From NCBI RefSeq assembly GCF_003851885.1, contig NZ_BHZE01000004.1, positions 62,001 to 126,000 of the forward strand: 64,000 bases of DNA, given 5' to 3'. The notes below the pieces were generated by a model that made no database searches, had not been told where the DNA came from, and saw only the letters and a list, made by a program, of their open reading frames with translations. Positions 7,520 through 40,892 of this stretch are shown in pieces. The position numbers were made by a program, and so were the translations under genes. This DNA is from Thermaurantimonas aggregans (GTDB lineage Bacteria; Bacteroidota; Bacteroidia; Flavobacteriales; Schleiferiaceae). How positions within the stretch are numbered: position 1 is the first letter of the stretch; each line of letters begins with the position of its first letter.

Positions 7520-8150
7520 TTTTTTTGTATTTTCTTTATCGTATGTGCCCCTAAAACCCTCACTTAGTCCATTCATTTAAGTTTGTACAAACAGGGGGCT
7601 CAAGCCACCTCGTCTGCTACCGTTTCCTCTGGGATATGCTTCGCTCCCGTGCTCCAGCTCTGCATAGCTTTACCTTCGCTGCGCGCTACAGCCGGACCTT
7701 AGGATGCAGACAAATTTTAAAACGTTCGTCTGGATACTTCTCGCGGAAGCAGCCAAGAACTACTTTTAGAATGAATACAGTTAATTGCAGATGTTAGTTA
7801 CAGAATTGAGCGGATGTAGTATTGCTCACCCTAGATCTCTCTTAATCCGTCAAGCGGATTAAAGAGGAACTTCCGCCTACCCCACTTTGCTTCCTCAGGT
7901 CTTAGAGAGTCGCTGATGCCGAAAAAGATTGTCAGACCTTCTTGATCGAGGACAATGTGGTGAATAATTTTTTTGAGTTAAGTGTACAGGCTCAAAGCTT
8001 TGATAAAGTCTTAATTAAATTCACTGTTTCACACCTACCCGTCTTTATACCATGTTCAAGCTCAAGTCTCTGGCATCAAAATCAAGCAAAAAATATGATA
8101 AAAATCAGGTTAAGTAATCTAAGGTTTTTTCAAATATTGTTAGATTCAAT
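7520..8150. other. Intergenic region, partly made of a degraded GGGCGTG-type repeat
   Basis: About 630 bp without a convincing coding frame. The first 200 bp include a repeat copy described separately. Around 7838-7858 the sequence 'taatccg tcaag cggatta' forms a 7-bp hairpin. The rest is AT-rich with no feature I recognise. Confidence 0.5.
7595..7705 (+). repeat. Dispersed GC-rich repeat, degraded copy C
   Basis: Positions 7626-7655 match 27445-27474 at 27 of 30 bases, including an identical 18-mer 'gcttcgctcccgtgctcc'. The leading GGGCGTG of the other copies is not preserved here, so this looks like a worn copy of the same element. Confidence 0.6.
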
Positions 8151-8158
8151 TACATTTG
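8151..8158 (+). promoter_or_regulatory. TAnnTTTG promoter core of the histidine kinase gene
   Basis: TACATTTG is a perfect -7 element ending 15 bp before the ATG at 8174, which implies a very short leader. Confidence 0.5.
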
Positions 8159-8173
8159 AAAAAAATCCCTTGA

Positions 8174-9397
8174 ATGGTAGTTCCATCAAAGCCCTTAGAT
8201 GAAGAAGAACGCCTAGCCGAACTATATAAATACGAAATACTCGACACCAACCCTGAAGAAGACTTCGACCAGCTGGTCGAGTTAGCTTCTGCAATTTGCG
8301 AAGTACCCATCTCTCTTGTATCCCTCATCGATCGAGACCGCCAATGGTTCAAAGCTAAAAAAGGCCTCGACATCGACGAAACCTCTCGAGATGTAGCTTT
8401 CTGCGCGCACGCCATTTTGCAAGACGAAGTCTTTATCGTCGAAAATGCCCTTGAAGACATCCGGTTTTTTGACAATCCATACGTAGTAAACGATGGCATC
8501 CGCTTTTATGCAGGCATGCCTATTAAAACGCGTAACGGAAAAAACCTTGGTACCCTATGTGTGATCGATCACGAGCCTAAAATCCTGAGAACAAGTCAGA
8601 AACGAGCTCTCGAAATTCTTGGCCGACAAGTGGTAAACCTCATGGAACTCCGCCTTACGAACAATCGCCAGAAAGAACTCATCACCCTTTTAGACAAGCA
8701 AAAAGAAGAACTTAAAGCCCAAAACGAATTCAACTCCCGCCTTATTAAGCTCTTAGCGCACGACATCAAAAGCCCACTCACCTCCATTAAAGGTGGTCTT
8801 GACCTCATCCTCGATGGACACCTCCAGCCCAACGAAGCCACCCAAATCTTTAAAGACCTCTCCAATAGCATAGACTCTACCCTTCAAATGGTAAATGACA
8901 CACTGAGATGGGGATTGCTAAACATTCGCAAAGAACTCGTACTTGAACCTATCCACCTCCACACTATGATCGAAGAAATAAAAGACCTTTACAAATTTCT
9001 TCTGAAGTCTAAACACATTCTTTTCTTCAACAATGTACCAGAAGATTACATCTTGTATTCCGATCCTGAATCCGTGGAAATCATCTTGAGAAATTTCATT
9101 CAAAATTCTATAAAATATACGGAAAACGGCACCGTAAAGGTCAGCGTTAACGACAATGACAGTTTTCGTTGCATCAGTGTGACCGACACAGGCAAGGGGA
9201 TGACGCCCGCTCAACTTCAGGCTATCAATCATCAAATCGGCCAATTCCTCTCCACTCCAGGTACCCACGGCGAAAAGGGCACTGGCTTTGGCTTACGCAT
9301 GTGCCTCGATCTGGCAAAATCTATCGGCGCCAACATCTATGCCTCTTCAGAAGAGGGAAAAGGCACCCAATTCAAACTGATTTTCAAACAAGATTGA
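8174..9397 (+). CDS. GAF-domain sensor histidine kinase
   Basis: The 407-residue protein has no membrane segment, so it should sense a cytoplasmic signal. An N-terminal GAF domain (about 20-165) includes the 'CAHAIL' block with its conserved cysteine. A coiled linker follows, then a HisKA domain with 'LLAHDIKSPL' (phospho-acceptor His196). The HATPase domain has N box 'NFIQNSIKYT', G1 'DTGKGM' and G2 'GTGFGLRM'. This GAF architecture is common in Bacteroidota and cyanobacteria, and its ligand is generally unknown. There is no response regulator next to it. The copper ATPase gene starts 43 bp downstream and may be cotranscribed. Confidence 0.93.
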   Translation: MVVPSKPLDEEERLAELYKYEILDTNPEEDFDQLVELASAICEVPISLVSLIDRDRQWFKAKKGLDIDETSRDVAFCAHAILQDEVFIVENALEDIRFFDNPYVVNDGIRFYAGMPIKTRNGKNLGTLCVIDHEPKILRTSQKRALEILGRQVVNLMELRLTNNRQKELITLLDKQKEELKAQNEFNSRLIKLLAHDIKSPLTSIKGGLDLILDGHLQPNEATQIFKDLSNSIDSTLQMVNDTLRWGLLNIRKELVLEPIHLHTMIEEIKDLYKFLLKSKHILFFNNVPEDYILYSDPESVEIILRNFIQNSIKYTENGTVKVSVNDNDSFRCISVTDTGKGMTPAQLQAINHQIGQFLSTPGTHGEKGTGFGLRMCLDLAKSIGANIYASSEEGKGTQFKLIFKQD

Positions 9398-28359: not shown

Positions 28360-29412
28360 ATGAAAAAGTTATTTCTTTTTATGCTGATGTCGTGCATCGT
28401 ACAGTCATATGCTCAGACGTTTGATAATCAGCGACTTTCAAATGAAATTAAAACAAATTTCAACAGCTACTTCGGTGCATACCTACGTCCTTTCACCGAG
28501 TCTTTCGGTGCTGCAAACGGCCTCATGTGGCAAATACCCCATAAAGCTGGTGCAAAGTTCAACATCAACATTTCTACCTTCGTCACAGGTAGCCTGCTGC
28601 CAGATACTTACAAGTCCTTTGACTTTAATACGCTCAACAAAGTCAATTTCGAACTGGTAAATCCAAACGACAACATTCTGCCTACCCTCACCGGCGGCCA
28701 GACGACAAACACCATGCGCTATTTCATAACCGATGACAATGGCAATCGCCTCTTCGACCCGATTAAAAACGATTACGTAACTGTGGATATCGATGCCCTT
28801 GAGGGTCTAAACCTGCCGATACAAATCACCCCAGCAGCTGGAGCACAGCTCGGAATTTGGACACCAATACATACCGGTTTAGCCCTTCGTTATGTCCCTA
28901 ATACAAACATTCAGGAAACAGGTCAAATTGGATTACTGGGTATAGGCGTAATTCACGATATAGCCGGCTGGTTTAAGTTGCCGCTCGAAATCAAGGCAGG
29001 CTTTAGCTACCAAAAGTTAGACATCGCTATCAACAACCCCATCCAGGACAATCCAAACCCCAACAAGTTTACCTTCAATTCTACTTCCCGCTCCTTTGAC
29101 CTCACCATTGGTAAATACTTGTGGATCATCAAACCTTATCTACAGATTTCGAGAATTACTTACAGCAACGAGTTGCTCCTATCCGGTAGATTTACCTATG
29201 ATTTCGAAGATTTCACAGGTGTTCCAGGCCCGATAAGAGACCAGATCAAACTTGATTTTCAAGATCCTGTTGACATCAAGACAAACAACACTATGATCAA
29301 CTACGGCGGTGGCCTTTTTATCAATCTCGGCATCTTTTACCTTCAGGCACAGTACATGCTCGGTACCTTTACCAATGCAGGTGTAGCTTTCGGATTAAAA
29401 ATAGGTTTCTAA
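28360..29412 (+). CDS. Exported outer-membrane protein, probably DUF6588 family
   Basis: A signal peptide (MKKLFLFMLMSCIVQSYAQ) is followed by 331 residues with alternating beta pattern, for example 'LPLEIKAGFSYQKLDI', 'SFDLTIGKYLWIIKPYLQIS' and the last strand 'AGVAFGLKIGF' ending in Phe, as in outer-membrane barrels. The arrangement resembles the DUF6588 family of Bacteroidota, whose function is not known. A terminator with a strong stem follows. Confidence 0.75.
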   Translation: MKKLFLFMLMSCIVQSYAQTFDNQRLSNEIKTNFNSYFGAYLRPFTESFGAANGLMWQIPHKAGAKFNINISTFVTGSLLPDTYKSFDFNTLNKVNFELVNPNDNILPTLTGGQTTNTMRYFITDDNGNRLFDPIKNDYVTVDIDALEGLNLPIQITPAAGAQLGIWTPIHTGLALRYVPNTNIQETGQIGLLGIGVIHDIAGWFKLPLEIKAGFSYQKLDIAINNPIQDNPNPNKFTFNSTSRSFDLTIGKYLWIIKPYLQISRITYSNELLLSGRFTYDFEDFTGVPGPIRDQIKLDFQDPVDIKTNNTMINYGGGLFINLGIFYLQAQYMLGTFTNAGVAFGLKIGF

Positions 29413-30128: not shown

Positions 30129-32231
30129 TCAGCGGGCCAACGACCTGTTCGACACAAAGAAGTCATAGCTTACCCGGGCATATGCGTAGCCATCCTGATA
30201 ATTGTTAATGGGTGTGTTTCGGTCTTCAAAGGGCTGCCATCCACCCTCCAGATCGATTGTAAGCCCTTTAACTACCACATATCTCACTCTCATAATGAAC
30301 GAATTGCGAATCTGTGGTAAGTTCCATGCCGATGAAAGCGATCGATTATTACCCGCCGATGCACTTACCTGCAGTTTGTTTTCTATAAGGTCGTACAAAA
30401 GGTTTACATTAAAAGCGTTCACATCACTCAATTTTTCTTGTACATTACTGTATAGCAATGTTTTACCAAAATCCAAGGACAGGTAAGTTCTGCTCCCGAA
30501 TCGCTCGCCCAGGCCGATCATTACATTGTAAAACGTGTTGCTCGAACCAGGGCGAATACGGTCTGTTCTTTCATTTAAAAATCCACTTAGTCTGAACGTT
30601 GTATTCCACCTGCCCCGCTGTACATTGTAGGAAATGATGCCATTGAACATTGTGAGATAATCATCAACCTCAGCACCAGGTATTACACTTCTTGTACTCA
30701 AACGGCTTTGTCGGTTGTACTGAAAAAAAATAGTCGGATATTTTGCCGAAATATTTACTTGTACACCAGCACCATAGTTTTCTGTTTTTAAAGTTGAAAG
30801 CAGGGCGTTGTTCAGATTATTTGTATAAGCTTGATATATGCCTGTGATGGTGAGTTTTTTCTTGAACAAAAACAATCGCTCTTGAAAGAGCAAATTATCT
30901 GTATTGTTTCTCAAAAAGGGATTGCTGAGAGAAAAATACTGTGGACCAATACGGCTGTAATCAGCCGTCATTTGGTGCCAGCTTGTACTCCAATTAATGT
31001 TAATAAAATAACTGACAAAATCTGTGGAAATTTGTGTAGGCTTAGTAGATGAATTTATTACAAAAATCCGCTGAAATGCTGATGGATCGAAGGGAAGTTT
31101 TACATTGTAATTGGTATCGAGTTCCTGGTTTGATAAAACCCCGAGTGAAATATCGTTGGTTATGGCGCTGAGTGAAATACCTGATTGAAGGAGAACCCTT
31201 CGACGAAAGAGGCGGGCCTGAAATTCAGCACCACCTACCAGATTGTCTTTAGGAGCCAATCCATATTGAATTGAAGAAGTATCGTCTTTTGCTTTGAGAC
31301 CTTGCAAAGCCAGCATCCAAGTTTTCTTTTTGTTGCCTACATACATTCGTACGGCAGTCAAATTCCTCTGGTAAGTGCCTGGCACCACCAATTGAGAATC
31401 GTTTATCATATTCTGCGGAATTGTCCCAAATTTTTCGTCCCATCGCTCCAGCCGGCCTTCTACGGGTCTATTCAGTTGGCCATGCACTATGTGCAGGCCT
31501 GAGCCCCCAACCTTCACATGAGTGCTGAAGCCCGTAATGCGCACACCTGAGAGCACCAGTCGGTCAAACGCCGGATTTAGATCTCCTACCAAAGCTTCAA
31601 ACCAGGAGGTTTGTAAGCCAGTTTGAAAAAAATTTCTGCTCTGAAGAAAAGGTCGATTATCGCTGGTAGCAAACATTTGAAAGGGTATCGTTACTCTATC
31701 GAGCACCAAACGCGTATTGGCAGTAAGCGTGCGGGTAAAAGGTGGTTCTTGCCTGAGCGCTGCGCCCGGTCCTGTAAGAAACTGCTCTCTGTTGTCAAAA
31801 GATATTGTGCCTCCAAATGAGTACTCTTTATTACGTTGGCCTTCCTTAGCATTCTCAGGTGTTCGTTCATTTACAAAAAAATGCCACTCCACCTCTTGCC
31901 ACCCAGATAAACCTTGTACTTTAAAAAAAATCCTCAAATAGTTTCTTCCATTGCGAAGGAGCTCGTAGTGAATAAAAGACAAAGTATGTTGTTGAATTTT
32001 TATTTCCGGATAGATGGGTTTCTTATTTAGAAAAATGCGCACTTTCCCGGGTACAAAAGTTCTTTGGTCATCCAGCATTATGGACACAAACAGGTTTTCT
32101 GCCGGCACTACCCCCTCAGGCTCGGGTGCAAGAATTTGGTATCTCAACTCCTGAGCATTCATTGAGGTAATAACAAAAATTGCCCAAAATAGCACCTGAC
32201 AAAAAGCCAATAAATTACATGATGCCGGCAT
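30129..32231 (-). CDS. Large exported outer-membrane beta-barrel protein, unknown function
   Basis: A signal peptide (about residues 1-26, ending MNAQ) is followed by an Ig-like region (about 27-130: 'YQILAPEPEGVVPAENLFVS', 'LRIFFKVQGLSGWQEVEWHFFV'). About 550 residues of amphipathic beta strands follow, with aromatic girdles such as 'LTITGIYQAYTNNL', 'TYLSLDFGKTLLYSN' and the end 'AYARVSYDFFVSNRSLAR'. This suggests a barrel of about 20 strands or more. I do not recognise the family. It is the last gene of a four-gene minus-strand operon and starts 13 bp after the fibronectin-like gene, so it may be the outer-membrane anchor or exit pore for the other three exported proteins. Confidence 0.75.
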   Translation of the reverse strand: MPASCNLLAFCQVLFWAIFVITSMNAQELRYQILAPEPEGVVPAENLFVSIMLDDQRTFVPGKVRIFLNKKPIYPEIKIQQHTLSFIHYELLRNGRNYLRIFFKVQGLSGWQEVEWHFFVNERTPENAKEGQRNKEYSFGGTISFDNREQFLTGPGAALRQEPPFTRTLTANTRLVLDRVTIPFQMFATSDNRPFLQSRNFFQTGLQTSWFEALVGDLNPAFDRLVLSGVRITGFSTHVKVGGSGLHIVHGQLNRPVEGRLERWDEKFGTIPQNMINDSQLVVPGTYQRNLTAVRMYVGNKKKTWMLALQGLKAKDDTSSIQYGLAPKDNLVGGAEFQARLFRRRVLLQSGISLSAITNDISLGVLSNQELDTNYNVKLPFDPSAFQRIFVINSSTKPTQISTDFVSYFININWSTSWHQMTADYSRIGPQYFSLSNPFLRNNTDNLLFQERLFLFKKKLTITGIYQAYTNNLNNALLSTLKTENYGAGVQVNISAKYPTIFFQYNRQSRLSTRSVIPGAEVDDYLTMFNGIISYNVQRGRWNTTFRLSGFLNERTDRIRPGSSNTFYNVMIGLGERFGSRTYLSLDFGKTLLYSNVQEKLSDVNAFNVNLLYDLIENKLQVSASAGNNRSLSSAWNLPQIRNSFIMRVRYVVVKGLTIDLEGGWQPFEDRNTPINNYQDGYAYARVSYDFFVSNRSLAR

Positions 32232-32244
32232 GAACGATTCTCAG

Positions 32245-34026
32245 TTAGTTGGATGAAACTTGTTTTTTCTTCTTCTCTGTTACTATCTCAACGGGTACAG
32301 ATCGCATGCTCGCCATGCCGTCGTGACTAATTGCTTCGATTTCAAACCGGTACTGACTAAAATAGCGCATTGGGCCTGTGTAAAATGACCGCCTATCAGC
32401 GGATAAATCATTTTCTGTAATGATTAGCATGCCATCGCGATAGATCCGAAACCCCTTTAAATCAGACACATCTGGATATTCCCAATAAATCATGGCTGTA
32501 TTTGAGTCTACTTCCCAGCGCTTTATAATCGGTACCGGGAGCACTTTCGAGGCCACTTTTACTGTAATGGTATCACTTGGTTCGCTTTCGTACATGTACT
32601 TACCTAAAGACGATACACAAAAGCGATAAGTTGCTCCCTGATCCATAGGCACTTCATAGACGAAGCGGGTTTCGCGAATTGCTTCTTCAAAATTGATCCA
32701 CCGAAGGTCGTTTGACAGAGGGTGAGATGCGTATATGTAAAATTCCTGAGTAATGGTGTCTTGTTGATTTCCCTTTTCCCACTCGAGTGTAATGAAAGTG
32801 CGCATGTTTTGGGTACGCACCGTAGCTCTTAAATTTTTAGGGCGTGGTGGGACGATTTTAGGCAAGTAATAAAACATTACCTCGTCGCTTGAGATCTCTG
32901 TTTGGTCTTTATACACTGCTTTGATCCGATATGCGTAGTATTCTTTCGGTATTAATGGCCCTTTGTCGTTATAAGAATAGGTATTTGGATCAGAGATCAC
33001 CCCTATCTTGGTAAAAGGGCCAGGAGGCAATGCCCGCCATATTTCAAAGCGATCGATATGACGTTGAACACTTTCAGCTATTTTAAAATTTAGCAGAATA
33101 CCTTGGTCATAAGACAGATTCCCGATGATTTGAAGTATTTCAGGTTTTTCATAGGTTTCAATGATCTCGTTTGGATCGTATTTAAAAAAGTTTTCGCTGT
33201 CTTCGAAATTAAAAAAGGAAATCAGGCGAATGGAATATTCATTGACCTCTGTGGGAGATGCGCTGCTATCGTAAACCGAGTAAAATCCATCAGGATTACG
33301 TTGGATCACAGGTGTTGGGTTGATTTTGATCCACTCATCACCATTGCGCCGATAGACATTAAAACCTCTGTGTGCAAAAAGGTTAAGAGTTTGCTGATCG
33401 GCACGCCAGAGCAACTGCACGTTTCTTTTGTTCGTAAACAGTCGCACATTAAAGTCATAAATTCGATTGAAAAAAAACTTTTCTCCGCCAACGAGGCGAA
33501 AGGTTGCAACAGGTCTACTCTGTTCCTTCTGATTAATCATCAGAAACAGACCGTATTCGTATGCTATGCCCATTTGTACATCTGAATCGTCGCAACCCAG
33601 ACCTGCTGCCCTTGCCACATTGTAGTTAATGCTTATTCCAAATTTAAATTCCTGTAACTTTTCAGAATCTTGCAGCTCACTTACAAGTTTAGAATTATCT
33701 ATCTGCTTTAATTTGCCTGATTGAAAGAGCGAATCGATTTCTTCACGAAAAGACAAAAGCGTTTCATTTGTCAAACCTAAATTTTCATACGACTTAGCTG
33801 AAGAAAGTTCAAACGATATTGGACCTGCCACAACAGACCATTGACGCTCTTTTTCACGGCGTTTTTTTAAAATAAATCCGTTTAAATTGGCTGGAACTGT
33901 TTTTGGCATCCAGAAAAATGACCAGCGTAGCCCATCGGGGCTCCCAGCTGTAAGCACGAAAGATTCATTTTGTGCACTCAAAATCAAGCTCTTGCAAAAT
34001 ATTAGGAGCAAAATCAACTGTTTCAT
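32245..34026 (-). CDS. Exported fibronectin type III domain protein
   Basis: I chose the ATG at 34026, which gives a clear signal peptide (MKQLILLLIFCKSLILSAQ); a longer frame from 34080 would overlap the upstream gene. The 593-residue protein has an N-terminal region of about 280 residues of unknown fold, then three fibronectin type III-like domains (about 285-390, 395-495 and 500-590). The later repeats show strand patterns such as 'ITLEWEKGNQQ', 'IYASHPLSNDLRWI', 'TAMIYWEYPDVSDLKGFRIYRDG' and 'YRFEIEAISHDG'. Such modules mediate extracellular or periplasmic binding. No T9SS sorting domain is visible. It lies 10 bp after the 1020-residue protein's gene. Confidence 0.8.
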   Translation of the reverse strand: MKQLILLLIFCKSLILSAQNESFVLTAGSPDGLRWSFFWMPKTVPANLNGFILKKRREKERQWSVVAGPISFELSSAKSYENLGLTNETLLSFREEIDSLFQSGKLKQIDNSKLVSELQDSEKLQEFKFGISINYNVARAAGLGCDDSDVQMGIAYEYGLFLMINQKEQSRPVATFRLVGGEKFFFNRIYDFNVRLFTNKRNVQLLWRADQQTLNLFAHRGFNVYRRNGDEWIKINPTPVIQRNPDGFYSVYDSSASPTEVNEYSIRLISFFNFEDSENFFKYDPNEIIETYEKPEILQIIGNLSYDQGILLNFKIAESVQRHIDRFEIWRALPPGPFTKIGVISDPNTYSYNDKGPLIPKEYYAYRIKAVYKDQTEISSDEVMFYYLPKIVPPRPKNLRATVRTQNMRTFITLEWEKGNQQDTITQEFYIYASHPLSNDLRWINFEEAIRETRFVYEVPMDQGATYRFCVSSLGKYMYESEPSDTITVKVASKVLPVPIIKRWEVDSNTAMIYWEYPDVSDLKGFRIYRDGMLIITENDLSADRRSFYTGPMRYFSQYRFEIEAISHDGMASMRSVPVEIVTEKKKKQVSSN

Positions 34027-34036
34027 GTCAAGCTCT

Positions 34037-37000
34037 TTAAATAGAAAATGAAATATTTGGACTTTCGATCTGGTTTCCATAGCCAGGAATGCTTGCCGGC
34101 AAGGTAATTCTTGCTCTTCCGGAAACAGTCAGGGTGTTGTTCATGTACGAAGCATCTCCCCACACTTCAGCTGAGGCTCCTGTATTAAAATCGTAAAAGA
34201 AGGTTTCTACCCTAACCTGCGCAATTCCTTGAACATAAATACCAAAACTACCACTTAAACCATTTATGTCAAGGTTCATATCTGCGTGCGAGTTCAGCTG
34301 GAGTCTTGCTGTAAAGGTAACCACTCCCTTAAGCCATGAATCTCTGTAATTAAACTCAGAGGTCAATTTGCCACCGATACTACCTGTAAAACTGTTAACG
34401 TCATCGAGATTGCCCTGCAGATTAAAATATCCGTTGTGAAGTTTCACCAAACCACCAAACATATCACCACCCATGTTGTTTCCATTGGCTTTAAACTGGT
34501 TGTTTCCGAAAAAGTAATGAATTTTTAAATTCTTTGATTGAAGGATTGATCCATTTGTTGGAAAATTTAAATCAGCCCCTACGTGGCCACTTATGGTATT
34601 AGCTGGTATAGCATAAGCTGCTACCACTTCACCTTTAAAATAGGGTGTATTTTTCAGTACTTTTACATTACCTTTTATAGTAACAGTTGCGTTTTCGGTG
34701 GTAAGTGCTAATTCGATTTTGCCAACCACCTCACACATTTCAGCCACATCGCTTATACCGGCTAGTATTCCTATCAAATAGGTATCTTTCTGCGGCTGAC
34801 CCGGTCCATCGATTCCTGTAAAGGAGTAATTATATCCCACAGATCCTCCTACTTGTGTGAGTTTTAACCCAGTGTTTCCTATAGGAATTCCAGGTGTTTT
34901 TGCTGCTACACTGAAGTAAACATAGTGGTACTCCTCCGGCTCATCTACAACTCCGTAGTCCAGTGATCCGTCAAGGCCAATTTTAGCAAACTCGCCTCTG
35001 AATGAGCCTTTAAAGCCATTGTTTTTAAAGGTCATATCTACCTCGAGTTCGCAGAAGCCTCGTTTAAGACGCCCTGATACCCCGCCCACGGCAATTTCGC
35101 CAGCCTGGTCAATGGTAAAATCCCGAATATTGGCCGCAGCTTTTACTCCAGTGGCACTGAGTTCAACACTTGCGTTGATTTTTAGTATTTCGTCTTTGTA
35201 TTCAGCTTTGTTCAGATCAAATGAAAATTTTGAATATTTAACCTTTCCGTTACAGTTAAATTCTTTAAGGCCACCCTCTTCCACTAAGAAGGTTGCCACA
35301 GTGATTTTGGCATTGAATTTTGAATGTTTTGCTTTTAAAGAGCCCTGAATTTTGGTCAGGTCAAAATACCTATCAAAATCAGCATTTACATTTAGCTCAT
35401 CCAGATCCATCGAAAATGCTTTTACCTTATTGGCTTGTACTTCTGCATTGCAACCTCCCCCTTGAGGAAAGTTCAGCACAAGCACAAAAGTTCCTTTTAC
35501 AGCTTTCAGATCAGAAACAGTGGCTTTCCCACTTCCATTGGTCAAGTGAAAGGTGCCATCAGGTATACTGGCTTCAAGTCCTAAACTTAATTCATCAAGT
35601 GATACAGTAAAGGCATTGGTCTTGTACCTGGCATTTGGTTTAGCTTTTAAAGTGCCTTTCAACACTCCTTGATTTGAAAAGTCGCCCTTAAAGTCAGCAA
35701 TTACTTTATCCTTATTTCCATCTTTTTTAACAATGTCGATGGCAATGCCCTGAATTCCGCTCCAGTTCCAGGTACCCGTAAAAGAATTTGTATTGGAAAA
35801 ATTGAAGGTAACTGTTGAATTTGTTCCTTTTCTGAGAAGAATGACTCCACGGCCGGCTGAGAGGTCTCTGTCTTCGGGATTGGTAGCCTTGACCTGTACT
35901 GAGCCTTTCAGATTGCCGTTGATATCTACTTCTAAGGCAAACTTTTTCAATGCCAAGTCTAATGCTTTGACTTTTTGGCCTGTAGGCAACTGAAACTCCA
36001 ATGCCGGCACTTCTGCATTACCTTCCCAGGAAAGTACCCCTCCGATCACAGCACGCGTATCGCAAACTCTTTTGATGCCGACTGTCACACCTTGTACCTC
36101 AGCCATACGTACAACTCCTCCCATTTCATCCATTTTTAGCCTCATTGCAGCATTATTAGCCTGATAGGTACAATGTCCATTGGCATCTGGTACAGGTGTC
36201 ATGGGATTCACATTTACTGCGATTTCTATAGGACCGACAAGTACGCTTCCGGCAATGGGTGTACAAAGACATTCACAATTGTTCACTATACTTCGGTAGG
36301 TATAACTCACATTTCCGATGCTGTATTCGAGTTCTACTTGTGCATTCTTGATAGAAGTATCAAGCAAGGTAATGGTTGGTGTCAGAGTTTGGGCATTGGT
36401 TATCCGCACTTTTGGATGAAGAGCCCTCCATCGATAATTGGCTCCAGGAAAATTTTGGGGATAAACTGCCTGTGCAGCATTGATCACTTTTGATCCTGCA
36501 GCACCCAAACACAAAATTTCGGGCAAATCCACCTTCATGCTCACCACAGTCAGATTCATTTCTTCCATACCCGATTGGCGTATGAGACCGTGATAGCGCG
36601 TGTTGCCGTTTTCGTCAACGGTTGTCCATGTAGAATCAGCAAATTCACCGGGCTGCAGGGTTTTGGCATATTCGATTTGATAAGTTCCGGTGATTTTGGC
36701 CGGGGTAGAAAACCCGGGCTCAGGAGCATCAGCTACTTTTGCACTCAAAGTACCTTGCCAGGTTATGGTCTGGTTTGTGCCGATACTGAGCTCTATGGAG
36801 CCAGGGTCGCTCAATGAGGCCTGAGATGGATTTACCTGAATAGTAACAGGTCCTTCTGTTCTAAGGGTTACTTTTCCGTTTTCAAACTGGTCTGTTTGTT
36901 TTTTGAATTGACCGTTAAGGGTTGTGGCCTGCCCGGTTTGTTTGCTCACAAGTAAAATTTGGTTTTTTGGCACTCCAAAAGGCTGAATCACATTAGGATT

Positions 37001-37099
37001 GTTGCCTTGCCCTTGTGCAGGTTTATCTTGTGCGCAGACGCTGGTTACAAATGATAATACGCTCAGGTATATCGCCAGGAAGTTGAAAAAGTTTTTCAT
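34037..37099 (-). CDS. Very large exported beta-rich protein, unknown function
   Basis: The 1020-residue protein starts with a signal peptide (MKNFFNFLAIYLSVLSFVTSVCAQ). Residues about 25-280 include Ig-like strands. The remainder is a long succession of short beta strands with a recurring pattern of alternating hydrophobic and Gly/Asn/Lys residues ('FKGDFSNQGVLKGTLKAKP', 'LTQVGGSVGYNYSFTGIDG', 'FNLQGNLDDVNSFTGSIGG'). The pattern recalls AsmA/TAM-like or beta-solenoid proteins, but I cannot assign a family. A few cysteines (for example 'NNCECLCT') may form disulfides in the periplasm. It is the second gene of the operon, 29 bp after the IPT/Ig gene. Confidence 0.75.
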   Translation of the reverse strand: MKNFFNFLAIYLSVLSFVTSVCAQDKPAQGQGNNPNVIQPFGVPKNQILLVSKQTGQATTLNGQFKKQTDQFENGKVTLRTEGPVTIQVNPSQASLSDPGSIELSIGTNQTITWQGTLSAKVADAPEPGFSTPAKITGTYQIEYAKTLQPGEFADSTWTTVDENGNTRYHGLIRQSGMEEMNLTVVSMKVDLPEILCLGAAGSKVINAAQAVYPQNFPGANYRWRALHPKVRITNAQTLTPTITLLDTSIKNAQVELEYSIGNVSYTYRSIVNNCECLCTPIAGSVLVGPIEIAVNVNPMTPVPDANGHCTYQANNAAMRLKMDEMGGVVRMAEVQGVTVGIKRVCDTRAVIGGVLSWEGNAEVPALEFQLPTGQKVKALDLALKKFALEVDINGNLKGSVQVKATNPEDRDLSAGRGVILLRKGTNSTVTFNFSNTNSFTGTWNWSGIQGIAIDIVKKDGNKDKVIADFKGDFSNQGVLKGTLKAKPNARYKTNAFTVSLDELSLGLEASIPDGTFHLTNGSGKATVSDLKAVKGTFVLVLNFPQGGGCNAEVQANKVKAFSMDLDELNVNADFDRYFDLTKIQGSLKAKHSKFNAKITVATFLVEEGGLKEFNCNGKVKYSKFSFDLNKAEYKDEILKINASVELSATGVKAAANIRDFTIDQAGEIAVGGVSGRLKRGFCELEVDMTFKNNGFKGSFRGEFAKIGLDGSLDYGVVDEPEEYHYVYFSVAAKTPGIPIGNTGLKLTQVGGSVGYNYSFTGIDGPGQPQKDTYLIGILAGISDVAEMCEVVGKIELALTTENATVTIKGNVKVLKNTPYFKGEVVAAYAIPANTISGHVGADLNFPTNGSILQSKNLKIHYFFGNNQFKANGNNMGGDMFGGLVKLHNGYFNLQGNLDDVNSFTGSIGGKLTSEFNYRDSWLKGVVTFTARLQLNSHADMNLDINGLSGSFGIYVQGIAQVRVETFFYDFNTGASAEVWGDASYMNNTLTVSGRARITLPASIPGYGNQIESPNISFSI

Positions 37100-37128
37100 A
37101 GGCTGTGGTTTTTTTAAGAGCTTACTGC

Positions 37129-38580
37129 TTATCTGTTTTGAATTCCAAAGAGTTGTTTCATGAGTAATTCGACCTTCCAGTCGGGTATGCGTCCTCCTCC
37201 GCCAGATACGGCACCACCGGTAATTGTAACTGTGGCGAAGTCTTGTAAGCCACTGTCCATCGCTATCACGGCAGCTGTACCATTATTGATACCAGCAGTA
37301 AAAACACCGTTTATATTGATAGTACCCATATTTGCAGGCACTACTCGCCATTGTGGTTGTCGATTTCCAATGGGTAAATTGTCTTGATCAAACATGTTAA
37401 CGGCAAACTGAAACTGGCTGCCTGCTGGAATTTGTGCTTGTGAGGGGACCACCTCAATACGCGCCACACGACGCCCCCTACCTGTTTGATCGGCTGGCTT
37501 TTGATAGATAAATCGAAAGACTTGACTTGGTAATTGAATTACACCTCTTGAGGTAATTACTTTACCTGTTATTTGCCAGGCATATACCTGACCGTCTATA
37601 AGCTGCTCGGCATATGCTGGATATTGAAAGCTGTTACCGGTAATATTTTCTTGTTTAAATACATGGATGTTTCTAACCACTTCTTCGGCAGTTTGGCCAG
37701 GTAATACTTTATAAAGGACAAAATCATAGCGTTCATTCTGTCCAAACCACTGAAAAAGAGGAAATTCTGTATAAATAATGGCTGGATTCATCCAAAATTC
37801 ATTACCCGGAGCGATCAGTTCAGGATTAAAAAATGGATTTGAAACCACGGAGTTGCCTTTGTCTGTAGATATTACAGAACCGTCTTTGTCTTTTACAACC
37901 AGTTCTACTTCATAATTGTCCGGGGGGAATTGACCTAATCGACGAACCTCATCAGCAAAAGCATACCCCCCACTACCTTGGCTACCACTAATTGTGATTT
38001 TTTCAAAATTTCGGTTGCTAATTCGTTCTTGTTGATTGGGTTGAAGATTTTTTTTGACCGATAGCGTGGCTACTTTTCCATAGTTTTGAGTGGAAAGTGA
38101 TACCTCGATGTTTACTTCCCTGCTTTGGTTATCATTTATTAAGTTAACAAAAAAGAGTATAGGTAAGCTGGAAATATTGGTTACGTCAAAATCAGCAGCG
38201 TTGTAGGTTTCATAAGGGACTATCTCAAGCAATGCCTTGAAATTTCCTGATATTGTAAATACCTCAAAACCATTAGGTTTAGTAATTACCTCGCTGCCAG
38301 TGGTCACAGTTACATTTCTGAAACCAGGTGCTGCTGTCTGAAGTACTGTGATTACAGCAGCTGCCATAGTAGGCGTTTGTACATTGATTGGGTTTTGCAC
38401 CAAAATTCCTTCTCCAAAATCTGCAACTGTTTGCCCGTTTTTAAAGTTGGAATTAATGCCCCTGATTATCACCGTAGTAGTAGTACCAATGGTAGCAGCC
38501 CCTGGCGAGAGATCAACAATCGTTTGACCGAATACCTGTGAACTCAGTAGAACACAAAAGAAAAATTTAAAAATTTTCAT
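37129..38580 (-). CDS. Exported IPT/TIG and Ig-like domain protein
   Basis: A signal peptide (MKIFKFFFCVLLSSQVFGQ) precedes an IPT/TIG-like domain at about residues 20-108 ('IVDLSPGAATIGTTTTVIIRG', then 'GFRNVTVTTG'). A central region (about 110-385) has a segment that reads 'FPLFQWFGQNERYDFVLYKV' and 'QVYAWQITGKV', resembling interrogative beta-sandwich repeats of other surface proteins. A bacterial Ig-like (Big) domain lies at about 390-458 ('RIEVVPSQAQIPAGSQFQFAV', 'NGTAAVIAMDSG'). The protein is probably periplasmic or cell-surface. It is the first gene of the four-gene operon, with about 500 bp of upstream AT-rich DNA. Confidence 0.8.
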   Translation of the reverse strand: MKIFKFFFCVLLSSQVFGQTIVDLSPGAATIGTTTTVIIRGINSNFKNGQTVADFGEGILVQNPINVQTPTMAAAVITVLQTAAPGFRNVTVTTGSEVITKPNGFEVFTISGNFKALLEIVPYETYNAADFDVTNISSLPILFFVNLINDNQSREVNIEVSLSTQNYGKVATLSVKKNLQPNQQERISNRNFEKITISGSQGSGGYAFADEVRRLGQFPPDNYEVELVVKDKDGSVISTDKGNSVVSNPFFNPELIAPGNEFWMNPAIIYTEFPLFQWFGQNERYDFVLYKVLPGQTAEEVVRNIHVFKQENITGNSFQYPAYAEQLIDGQVYAWQITGKVITSRGVIQLPSQVFRFIYQKPADQTGRGRRVARIEVVPSQAQIPAGSQFQFAVNMFDQDNLPIGNRQPQWRVVPANMGTININGVFTAGINNGTAAVIAMDSGLQDFATVTITGGAVSGGGGRIPDWKVELLMKQLFGIQNR

Positions 38581-40104: not shown

Positions 40105-40134
40105 TAATGTTTGCATATAAAACGTTAAACATTA
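40105..40134. promoter_or_regulatory. Inverted repeat at the rhodopsin start codon
   Basis: TAATGTTT (40105-40112) and AAACATTA (40127-40134) are perfect inverted repeats with a 14-bp spacer. The right arm includes the A of the start codon. The left arm overlaps the best -7-like box, AATGTTTG (40106-40113). Confidence 0.5.
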
Positions 40135-40892
40135 TGAAAACAAATTTACTTGATGTCGTCACCATTCCGGTAGATGATCCGGTGGCTTTCACTTTCTTTA
40201 CCGGCTACATGTCAATGTTTGCCGCTTCGGTCTTTTTCTTTTTTGAGCGTTCGAGAGTACCAGAGAAGTGGAAAACTTCGCTGCTGGTATCTGGATTGAT
40301 CACTGGTATTGCTGCCGTACACTACTACTACATGCGCGATTACTACGCCAGCACGGGAAGCAATCCAACAGCCTTGCGCTACATCGATTGGACACTTACT
40401 GTACCTCTGATGTGTGTAGAATTTTATTTATTGACCAAACCAGCTGGAGCTACTAAAGGACTTATGTGGCGATTAATCATCGCTGCCGTATGGATGCTTG
40501 TATTTGGATATATTGGCGAGGCCTTTAATCCGGAAGGAGGAAGTACAAGTCATTCCGTTACTTATGGAGTGCTTTCAACCTTAGGATACGTTTACATTTT
40601 ATACTTGGCCTGGATGGGCGAAGTAAAACAGCTGGCCGAAAAAACGAACAATCCCACTATTATAAGAGGTATCCGCACATTATCATGGTTTATTTTAGTT
40701 GGTTGGGCTATCTATCCAATTGGATACATGTGTATGCCTGGTGGCTGGCTCAATATCGCATTTGGCTGGCAGCCTAGTGCTGTTGATTTATTCTATAACA
40801 TAGCCGATGCTATAAATAAAATTGGATTTGGACTAGTGGTGTATAACATCGCTATCGATGATCTTTCAAAGGCAAAGGTTCTAGCTGCTTGA
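40134..40892 (+). CDS. Proton-pumping microbial rhodopsin (proteorhodopsin/xanthorhodopsin type)
   Basis: The ATG at 40134 gives a 252-residue, seven-helix protein. Retinal would bind Lys229 in 'ADAINKIGFG', with Asp225 as second counterion. Helix C reads 'RYIDWTLTVPLMCVEFYLL': Asp85 as proton acceptor, Thr89 and Glu96 as proton donor make the DTE triad of outward proton pumps (not the NQ or NTQ motifs of sodium and chloride pumps). Met93 sits at the colour-tuning site, where Leu or Met gives green and Gln gives blue absorption. His63 matches the conserved His of proteorhodopsin. Gly145 in helix E occupies the position of the carotenoid-antenna fenestration. No blh or carotenoid genes are in the window. 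Confidence 0.96.
   Translation: MKTNLLDVVTIPVDDPVAFTFFTGYMSMFAASVFFFFERSRVPEKWKTSLLVSGLITGIAAVHYYYMRDYYASTGSNPTALRYIDWTLTVPLMCVEFYLLTKPAGATKGLMWRLIIAAVWMLVFGYIGEAFNPEGGSTSHSVTYGVLSTLGYVYILYLAWMGEVKQLAEKTNNPTIIRGIRTLSWFILVGWAIYPIGYMCMPGGWLNIAFGWQPSAVDLFYNIADAINKIGFGLVVYNIAIDDLSKAKVLAA

What the first reader, a model, noticed from the sequence alone, without database searches (positions are those of the whole stretch)
30129..38580. Four-gene operon of large exported proteins with no recognised function
Four adjacent minus-strand genes, spaced 29, 10 and 13 bp, all carry signal peptides: an IPT/TIG plus Ig-like protein, a 1020-residue beta-strand-repeat protein, a fibronectin type III protein and a barrel of about 550 residues preceded by an Ig-like domain. 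None shows a type IX sorting domain, an enzyme motif or a recognised name. The order suggests an outer-membrane barrel with three partners, such as a surface-fibre, adhesion or envelope-bridging assembly. The layout and signals are seen in the sequence; the joint function is inference. This is the strongest candidate for an undescribed system in the window.
Basis: partly seen in the sequence, partly recalled or inferred. Interest (0 to 1): 0.62.

Follow-up and report, generated by a model that had tools for sequence, protein, structure and literature searches.

The report
Outer-membrane barrel paired with TANFOR-like protein
The four genes are one version of a surface-protein cassette that recurs across the Bacteroidota, in which one outer-membrane barrel family sits next to, or is fused to, a TANFOR-like exported protein; TANFOR proteins have been described as toxins with no known route out of the cell, and this barrel is a candidate for that route.

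Summary
Confirmed: four adjacent minus-strand genes (30129-38580; gaps 29, 10, 13 bp), each with an N-terminal signal-like segment and no T9SS sorting domain. Pfam and NCBIfam name none of them. They are not orphans. The 700-aa barrel belongs to a family found in 56/247 class genomes and, with a wider profile, 133/296 phylum genomes. The 483-aa protein contains a divergent TANFOR-like domain (profile-profile probability 99%, E 6e-18). The 593-aa protein is the FN3 protein of TANFOR neighbourhoods. The 1020-aa protein resembles the middle region of TANFOR giants (85-95%). All 18 class genomes with a TANFOR-model match carry the barrel (p 2e-13). Two independent fusions join TANFOR-like protein and barrel in one chain, and the same four-gene order recurs in distant genera. 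The operon is therefore a split variant of a widespread 'TANFOR-like + barrel (+ FN3 + large cargo)' cassette. TANFOR proteins were described in 2020 as polymorphic toxins of unknown export route; neither the barrel partner nor the split form appears in the papers I could search. Most likely mechanism (inferred): the barrel anchors or exports the TANFOR-like protein and its large beta-rich partner as a surface binding assembly. No toxin domain was found here. Structure models were poor; export is untested.

The parts
37129..38580 (-). Gene 1 (P1), 483 aa, exported; TANFOR-like protein with N-terminal TIG-type and C-terminal Big_2/LigA-type Ig domains
   Evidence: ORF; 81% identical syntenic orthologue in G001; LigA-type C-terminal domain
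37501..38244 (-). Within gene 1: TANFOR-like domain plus following Ig-like domain (residues about 113-360)
   Evidence: hhalign of the P1 family with N-termini of TANFOR giants: Prob 99.0, E 5.9e-18, 252 columns; clade-only HMM finds giants to 1e-8
34037..37099 (-). Gene 2 (P2), 1020 aa, exported beta-strand-rich protein
   Evidence: ORF; full-length homologues in G001, G188, G168, G409 next to the other genes
36260..36982 (-). Within gene 2: N-terminal domain (residues about 40-280) that is also found fused between P1 and the barrel in G231/G358
   Evidence: HMM hits L054 468-683 (2.9e-67) and L124 473-691 (1.4e-37)
34556..35431 (-). Within gene 2: region resembling the middle domain of TANFOR giants (residues about 557-848, motif GIPxGxxGLxLTxxGG)
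   Evidence: hhalign Prob 85-95%, E 6e-6 to 3e-8; reversed control 7%, unrelated families 0.2%
32245..34026 (-). Gene 3 (P3), 593 aa, exported FN3-repeat protein
   Evidence: ORF; family co-occurs with the barrel in 32/32 genomes at E<=1e-14
30129..32231 (-). Gene 4 (P4), 700 aa, outer-membrane beta-barrel with N-terminal Ig-like domain
   Evidence: ORF; barrel family in 56/247 class and 133/296 phylum genomes; barrel-only structural matches of a low-confidence model
31857..32150 (-). Within gene 4: N-terminal Ig-like domain (residues about 28-125)
   Evidence: sequence and alignment A6; absent from the 550-600 aa TANFOR-type barrel of G018
30132..31844 (-). Within gene 4: barrel domain (residues about 130-700)
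   Evidence: homology to TANFOR-associated barrels: hhalign Prob 100, E 1.2e-48 over 518 columns

Best explanation
The operon is a split, toxin-less variant of a widespread Bacteroidota cassette built around a constant pair: a large outer-membrane beta-barrel (gene 4) and a TANFOR-like exported protein (gene 1). All four products enter the periplasm by Sec (inferred from signal-like N-termini). The TANFOR-like region of gene 1 docks on its cognate barrel; the barrel anchors it, or lets it pass, at the outer membrane; the large beta-rich protein (gene 2), whose counterpart in other genomes is part of the same polypeptide as the TANFOR domain, is the cargo/stalk; the FN3 protein (gene 3) is an accessory binding module, replaced by a LamG-domain protein in a relative. 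The likely job is a surface adhesive or ligand-binding assembly. Shown here: family identity, linkage, co-occurrence, fusion. Inferred: docking, export/anchoring, surface exposure and adhesion.
For: Barrel family homology to TANFOR-giant barrels (E 1.2e-48); TANFOR-like domain in gene 1; gene 2 region homologous to giants' middle domain; FN3 family shared. 18/18 genomes with a TIGR02542 match carry the barrel, p 2e-13, and 32/32 with the FN3 family, p 2.5e-25. 47 of 74 barrels have a same-strand TANFOR-like gene within 2 genes, and 57 of 69 TANFOR-like genes have a barrel within 3. Same order P1>P2>P3>P4 in G188 and G409; P1>P4 in others; tandem P1>P4>P1>P4 in G379. Fusions of P1+P2N+barrel (G231, G358) and, separately, TANFOR-like+barrel (G644). 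Pairwise distances of the two partners correlate, Mantel r 0.60, 0/2000 permutations. LamG gene in place of FN3 in G134. No T9SS sorting domain in any member.
Against: No experiment, and structure prediction failed (pLDDT 44-45), so neither a pore nor a complex is shown. About a third of barrels have no TANFOR-like gene in reach, partly because of contig ends. The Mantel test is not corrected for species phylogeny. In other classes the pair sits with FecR and CHASE2-cyclase genes, which hints at sensing, not secretion.
Confidence: 0.55

Rival explanations
1. T9SS does the export and the barrel is only a surface anchor or shuttle, functionally like PorP/SprF for type B substrates; TANFOR-like proteins use an unrecognised T9SS signal.
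For: The genome has a T9SS (SprA). Jana et al. proposed T9SS export for TANFOR proteins and report T9SS in >95% of genomes encoding a TANFOR domain (PMC7073777). Dedicated PorP/SprF barrels encoded next to type B substrates are a known arrangement (PMC9143113, PMC12618676).
Against: No type A/B sorting domain in any member; the barrel shows no detectable relation to PorP/SprF (hhalign Prob 0.2-3.5%).
Confidence: 0.22
2. The pair is a trans-envelope sensor or scaffold, not a secretion/adhesion assembly: the TANFOR-like protein stays periplasmic and reports the state of the barrel.
For: In other classes the order is TANFOR-like > FecR-domain > barrel > CHASE2-adenylate/guanylate cyclase. N-terminal fusions to the barrel would place the TANFOR-like part in the periplasm if the usual outer-membrane protein topology holds.
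Against: The window operon has no regulator, FecR or cyclase gene; the large beta-rich, FN3 and LamG proteins suit surface exposure better.
Confidence: 0.13
3. The operon is a polymorphic-toxin delivery locus like those described for TANFOR proteins.
For: TANFOR proteins with C-terminal toxin domains are documented (PMC7073777).
Against: No toxin, nuclease or immunity family in the four proteins, none in the four TANFOR-like giants scanned with Pfam, no adjacent immunity-like gene recognised; gene 2's C-terminus is alignable within its clade instead of freely variable.
Confidence: 0.07
4. Four unrelated exported proteins that happen to be neighbours.
For: Most genomes sampled from the same family lack the genes.
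Against: Same four-gene order in distant genera, strong co-occurrence and fusions; a deletion scar of the operon beside the same neighbour gene in G014 shows loss, not chance assembly.
Confidence: 0.02

Closest known systems
TANFOR-domain protein loci (TIGR02542; Jana, Salomon and Bosis 2020, PMC7073777)
   Same: TANFOR-like domain near the N-terminus, Sec signal, large beta-rich body, FN3 neighbour, Bacteroidota
   Different: Split over separate genes, no toxin domain, TIGR02542 does not detect it directly; a constant barrel partner, which I did not find reported in the paper's text
PorP/SprF-type barrels with T9SS type B substrates (SprB/SprF, PG1035/PorP; PMC9143113, PMC12618676)
   Same: Large exported surface protein encoded next to a dedicated outer-membrane barrel
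   Different: Barrel about 570 residues and not detectably homologous to PF11751; no sorting domain on the partners
Type V (autotransporter / two-partner) secretion, from general knowledge
   Same: Fused or adjacent passenger and outer-membrane barrel; passenger N-terminal to the barrel in the fusions
   Different: No Pfam match to any type V family; barrel size and partners differ; secretion not shown

Membership tests
TANFOR-domain proteins (TIGR02542) | Match to the curated TIGR02542 model above its cut-off (67 bits) | tested here: not met
   P0001: no hit at E<=1; none of the 247 class genomes passes the cut-off either, best 46.8 bits
TANFOR-domain proteins (TIGR02542) | Remote homology to the TANFOR region of giants that the model does match | tested here: met
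   hhalign Prob 99.0, E 5.9e-18; the giants L055 and L016 match TIGR02542 at 7e-8 and 2e-4
TANFOR-domain proteins (TIGR02542) | C-terminal toxin domain / downstream immunity gene (polymorphic toxin) | tested here: not met
   No toxin family in the operon proteins
TANFOR-domain proteins (TIGR02542) | FN3 proteins in the neighbourhood | tested here: met
   Gene 3 family; FN3 domains are enriched in TANFOR neighbourhoods in PMC7073777 Table 1; co-occurrence with the barrel
T9SS substrates | Type A or B C-terminal sorting domain | tested here: not met
   No NCBIfam/Pfam hit in the four proteins; TIGR04183 scan of the whole genome finds about 62 loci, none in the operon
PorP/SprF barrels (PF11751) | Sequence homology to PorP_SprF | tested here: not met
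   No Pfam hit; hhalign Prob 0.2-3.5% against PorP/SprF proteins of the same genome
PorP/SprF barrels (PF11751) | Physical association with the neighbouring exported protein | not testable with these tools
   needs pull-down or complex prediction
TANFOR-like + barrel cassette (defined in this work) | Barrel of the A9 family with a TANFOR-like gene or domain within 3 genes on the same strand | tested here: met
   window gene 4 is 3 genes from gene 1; general pattern

The most novel reading that the evidence does not exclude
The barrel is the dedicated outer-membrane translocon of TANFOR-type proteins, i.e. a two-step secretion pathway of Bacteroidota separate from T9SS, of which this operon is a split, adhesin-type version.
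Probability: 0.25. Interest if true: 0.88.

Novelty: new variant of a known kind. Interest (0 to 1): 0.63.

Why it matters
TANFOR proteins were described in 2020 as Bacteroidota toxins with an unknown export route, guessed to be T9SS. A barrel that co-occurs with every TANFOR-model-positive genome in the class sample, sits beside the TANFOR-like gene and is sometimes fused to it gives a specific, testable candidate for how they reach or cross the outer membrane. It also groups many large exported proteins with no matching family into one system with interchangeable partners: FN3, LamG, very large giants, and FecR plus CHASE2-cyclase.

Tried and rejected
Single-sequence searches in the family and the first named-contig scan suggested lineage-restricted orphans; profile searches overturned this. 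AlphaFold models of genes 2 and 4 had pLDDT 44-45, with only 3-4 admissible alignment rows; their Foldseek matches are used only as weak support that gene 4 is a barrel, and gene 2's Ig/titin matches are disregarded. PorP/SprF homology was tested twice: one search used wrongly extracted ORFs and is discarded for that point, one search is the corrected test. Solved-structure searches for genes 2 and 4 gave nothing. Promoter/terminator scans were at chance. The very large 'LTGGPxQPEV' proteins beside some TANFOR-like genes looked RHS-like from memory, but the two scanned matched no Pfam or NCBIfam family, so they are not called RHS. CHASE2/FecR neighbours were found only in other classes and are not part of the window operon. 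A transposon-mutagenesis paper on two tandem Flavobacterium spreading genes was checked and does not mention these families.

Full report
Observation. Each begins with a signal-like hydrophobic segment. Pfam and NCBIfam give no curated family for any of them. The genome (2.67 Mb, 57 contigs) has a T9SS (SprA) and about 62 sorting-domain loci, none in this operon. In the same-genus genome G001, deposited as an uncultured Flavobacteriales MAG, the same genes lie on broken contigs: genes 2-4 in the same order on one contig and gene 1 at the end of another. Amino-acid change there is far below saturated synonymous change, so these are working genes.

Are they orphans? Single-sequence searches of 60 family genomes found the barrel in four (own genome included) and gene 2 only in the own genome and its same-genus relative. 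Two of the weak barrel hits were informative. In G018 the barrel and FN3 homologues sit directly after a 2119-aa giant whose N-terminus matches the TANFOR model TIGR02542 weakly (2e-4). In G014 only a scar remains: residues 69-159 of gene 3 run into residues 641-700 of gene 4, beside the same DUF1801-type neighbour gene as in the window, so this relative lost the operon.

The barrel family. A profile from four barrels (A4) hit 56 of 247 class genomes; a wider profile (A9) hit 133 of 296 phylum genomes and 83 of 140 genera. Long barrels like gene 4 and the 550-600 aa TANFOR-type barrels are one family (hhalign Prob 100, E 1.2e-48). They are not detectably PorP/SprF.

What sits beside the barrel. 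In the 40 class neighbourhoods taken by barrel hit, the commonest order is barrel > TANFOR-like giant, often followed by FN3. A second group, to which the window belongs, has gene 1 then the others in varying order: P1>P2>P3>P4 (window, G188, G409), P1>P4>P2>P3 (G168), P1>P4 (G272, G260, G347; and G137, where a gene 2 relative lies divergently upstream), P1>P2>x>P4 (G134, G200), and a tandem P1>P4>P1>P4 (G379). In G134 the 'x' gene is a LamG-domain protein. A third group pairs a ~375-aa TANFOR-like protein with a 690-900 aa barrel and a ~2000-aa protein. In other classes the pair lies with a FecR-domain gene and a CHASE2-cyclase gene. Overall 47 of 74 barrels have a same-strand TANFOR-like gene within two genes, and 57 of 69 TANFOR-like genes have a barrel within three.

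Statistics. Every one of the 18 class genomes with a TIGR02542 match (E<=1e-3) carries the barrel (56/247 background; Fisher p 2e-13), as do all 32 genomes with a strong gene-3 match (p 2.5e-25). The distances of 46 barrel/TANFOR-like pairs correlate (Mantel r 0.60, 0 of 2000 permutations), though this is not corrected for species relatedness.

Domain identity. The gene 1 family aligns with the N-termini of the giants over 252 columns (Prob 99.0, E 5.9e-18): residues about 113-360 are a TANFOR-like domain plus the Ig-like domain that follows it in giants. A profile built only from the gene 1 clade finds giants on its own (to 1e-8). Gene 1 also has a LigA-type C-terminal Ig domain. Gene 2 residues about 557-848 resemble the giants' middle region (Prob 85-95%; reversed control 7%, unrelated families 0.2%); this link is the weakest of the four. 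Gene 3 is the FN3 family.

Fusions. In G231 and G358, two species of one genus, a single ORF of 1390/1396 codons carries gene 1, the gene 2 N-terminal domain and the barrel. In G644 an independent 1016-codon ORF joins a TANFOR-like region (19-414) to the barrel (475-1009). Fusions of this kind are strong evidence that the parts work together.

Mechanism. Shown: the operon is a split version of a recurrent TANFOR-like + barrel cassette. Inferred: the TANFOR-like region docks on the barrel, the barrel anchors or exports it, and the large beta-rich protein is cargo or stalk. Adhesion or ligand binding is the best guess for this operon because it carries no recognised toxin and a relative has LamG in place of FN3. 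Two rivals remain open: T9SS export with barrel anchoring, and a sensing role suggested by the FecR/CHASE2 context. Structure prediction could not separate them (pLDDT 44-45); the best-ranked matches of the gene 4 model are all outer-membrane barrel proteins, mostly porins and ushers.

Relation to the literature. Jana, Salomon and Bosis 2020 (PMC7073777) described TANFOR proteins as polymorphic toxins, found FN3, SprB and sorting-domain proteins enriched nearby, and hypothesised T9SS export. A whole-word search of the library found only one other biological paper naming TANFOR, in a list (PMC11796102). I found no report of the barrel partner or of split systems; the library is open-access only, so absence there is not proof of novelty. 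Barrel-plus-substrate pairs are known for T9SS type B proteins (PMC9143113, PMC12618676), which is what this arrangement most resembles in layout without sharing the barrel family or the sorting domain.

Verdict. Observation confirmed; interpretation partly right; a new variant of a known kind, with a plausible but unproven case for a dedicated outer-membrane route.

Noticed in passing
L015 (G014:C2) 7810-8231: Deletion scar: a remnant of gene 3 (residues 69-159) running into the last 60 residues of gene 4, beside the same DUF1801-type gene as in the window.
   Followed up: partly
L159, L170, L172, L174, L157: In other classes of the phylum, conserved order: ~350-400 aa protein (TANFOR-like by profile in most) > FecR-domain protein > ~800-900 aa barrel > CHASE2 plus adenylate/guanylate cyclase protein; a possible envelope-sensing cassette.
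   Followed up: partly
L125, L126, L132, L135-L137: ~375-aa TANFOR-like proteins precede ~1800-2300 aa proteins beginning near 'LTGGPSQPEVQSFEPVGT'; the two scanned match no Pfam or NCBIfam family. A short OmpH-like gene lies between them in L125, with similar-sized genes in several others.
   Followed up: no
L008 vs L009 (G001:C38 and C105): Two versions of the operon in one MAG; gene 3 differs much more at synonymous sites (dS about 1.0) than gene 4 (about 0.25), suggesting recombination or diversifying alleles, or mixed strains.
   Followed up: no
window 40107-40892: Bacteriorhodopsin-family (light-driven pump or sensor) gene, Pfam Bac_rhodopsin 8.6e-41.
   Followed up: no
L089 12073-21155: In the pond MAG D1_MAG_00013 the operon is followed by an Omp85-family gene and, some 4-9 kb further on, genes that read as PorP/SprF, GldK, GldL and GldM of the T9SS (by eye); may be coincidence.
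   Followed up: no
window 28360-29412: DUF6588 protein near the operon; also kept near it in the same-genus MAG (L008, L009).
   Followed up: no
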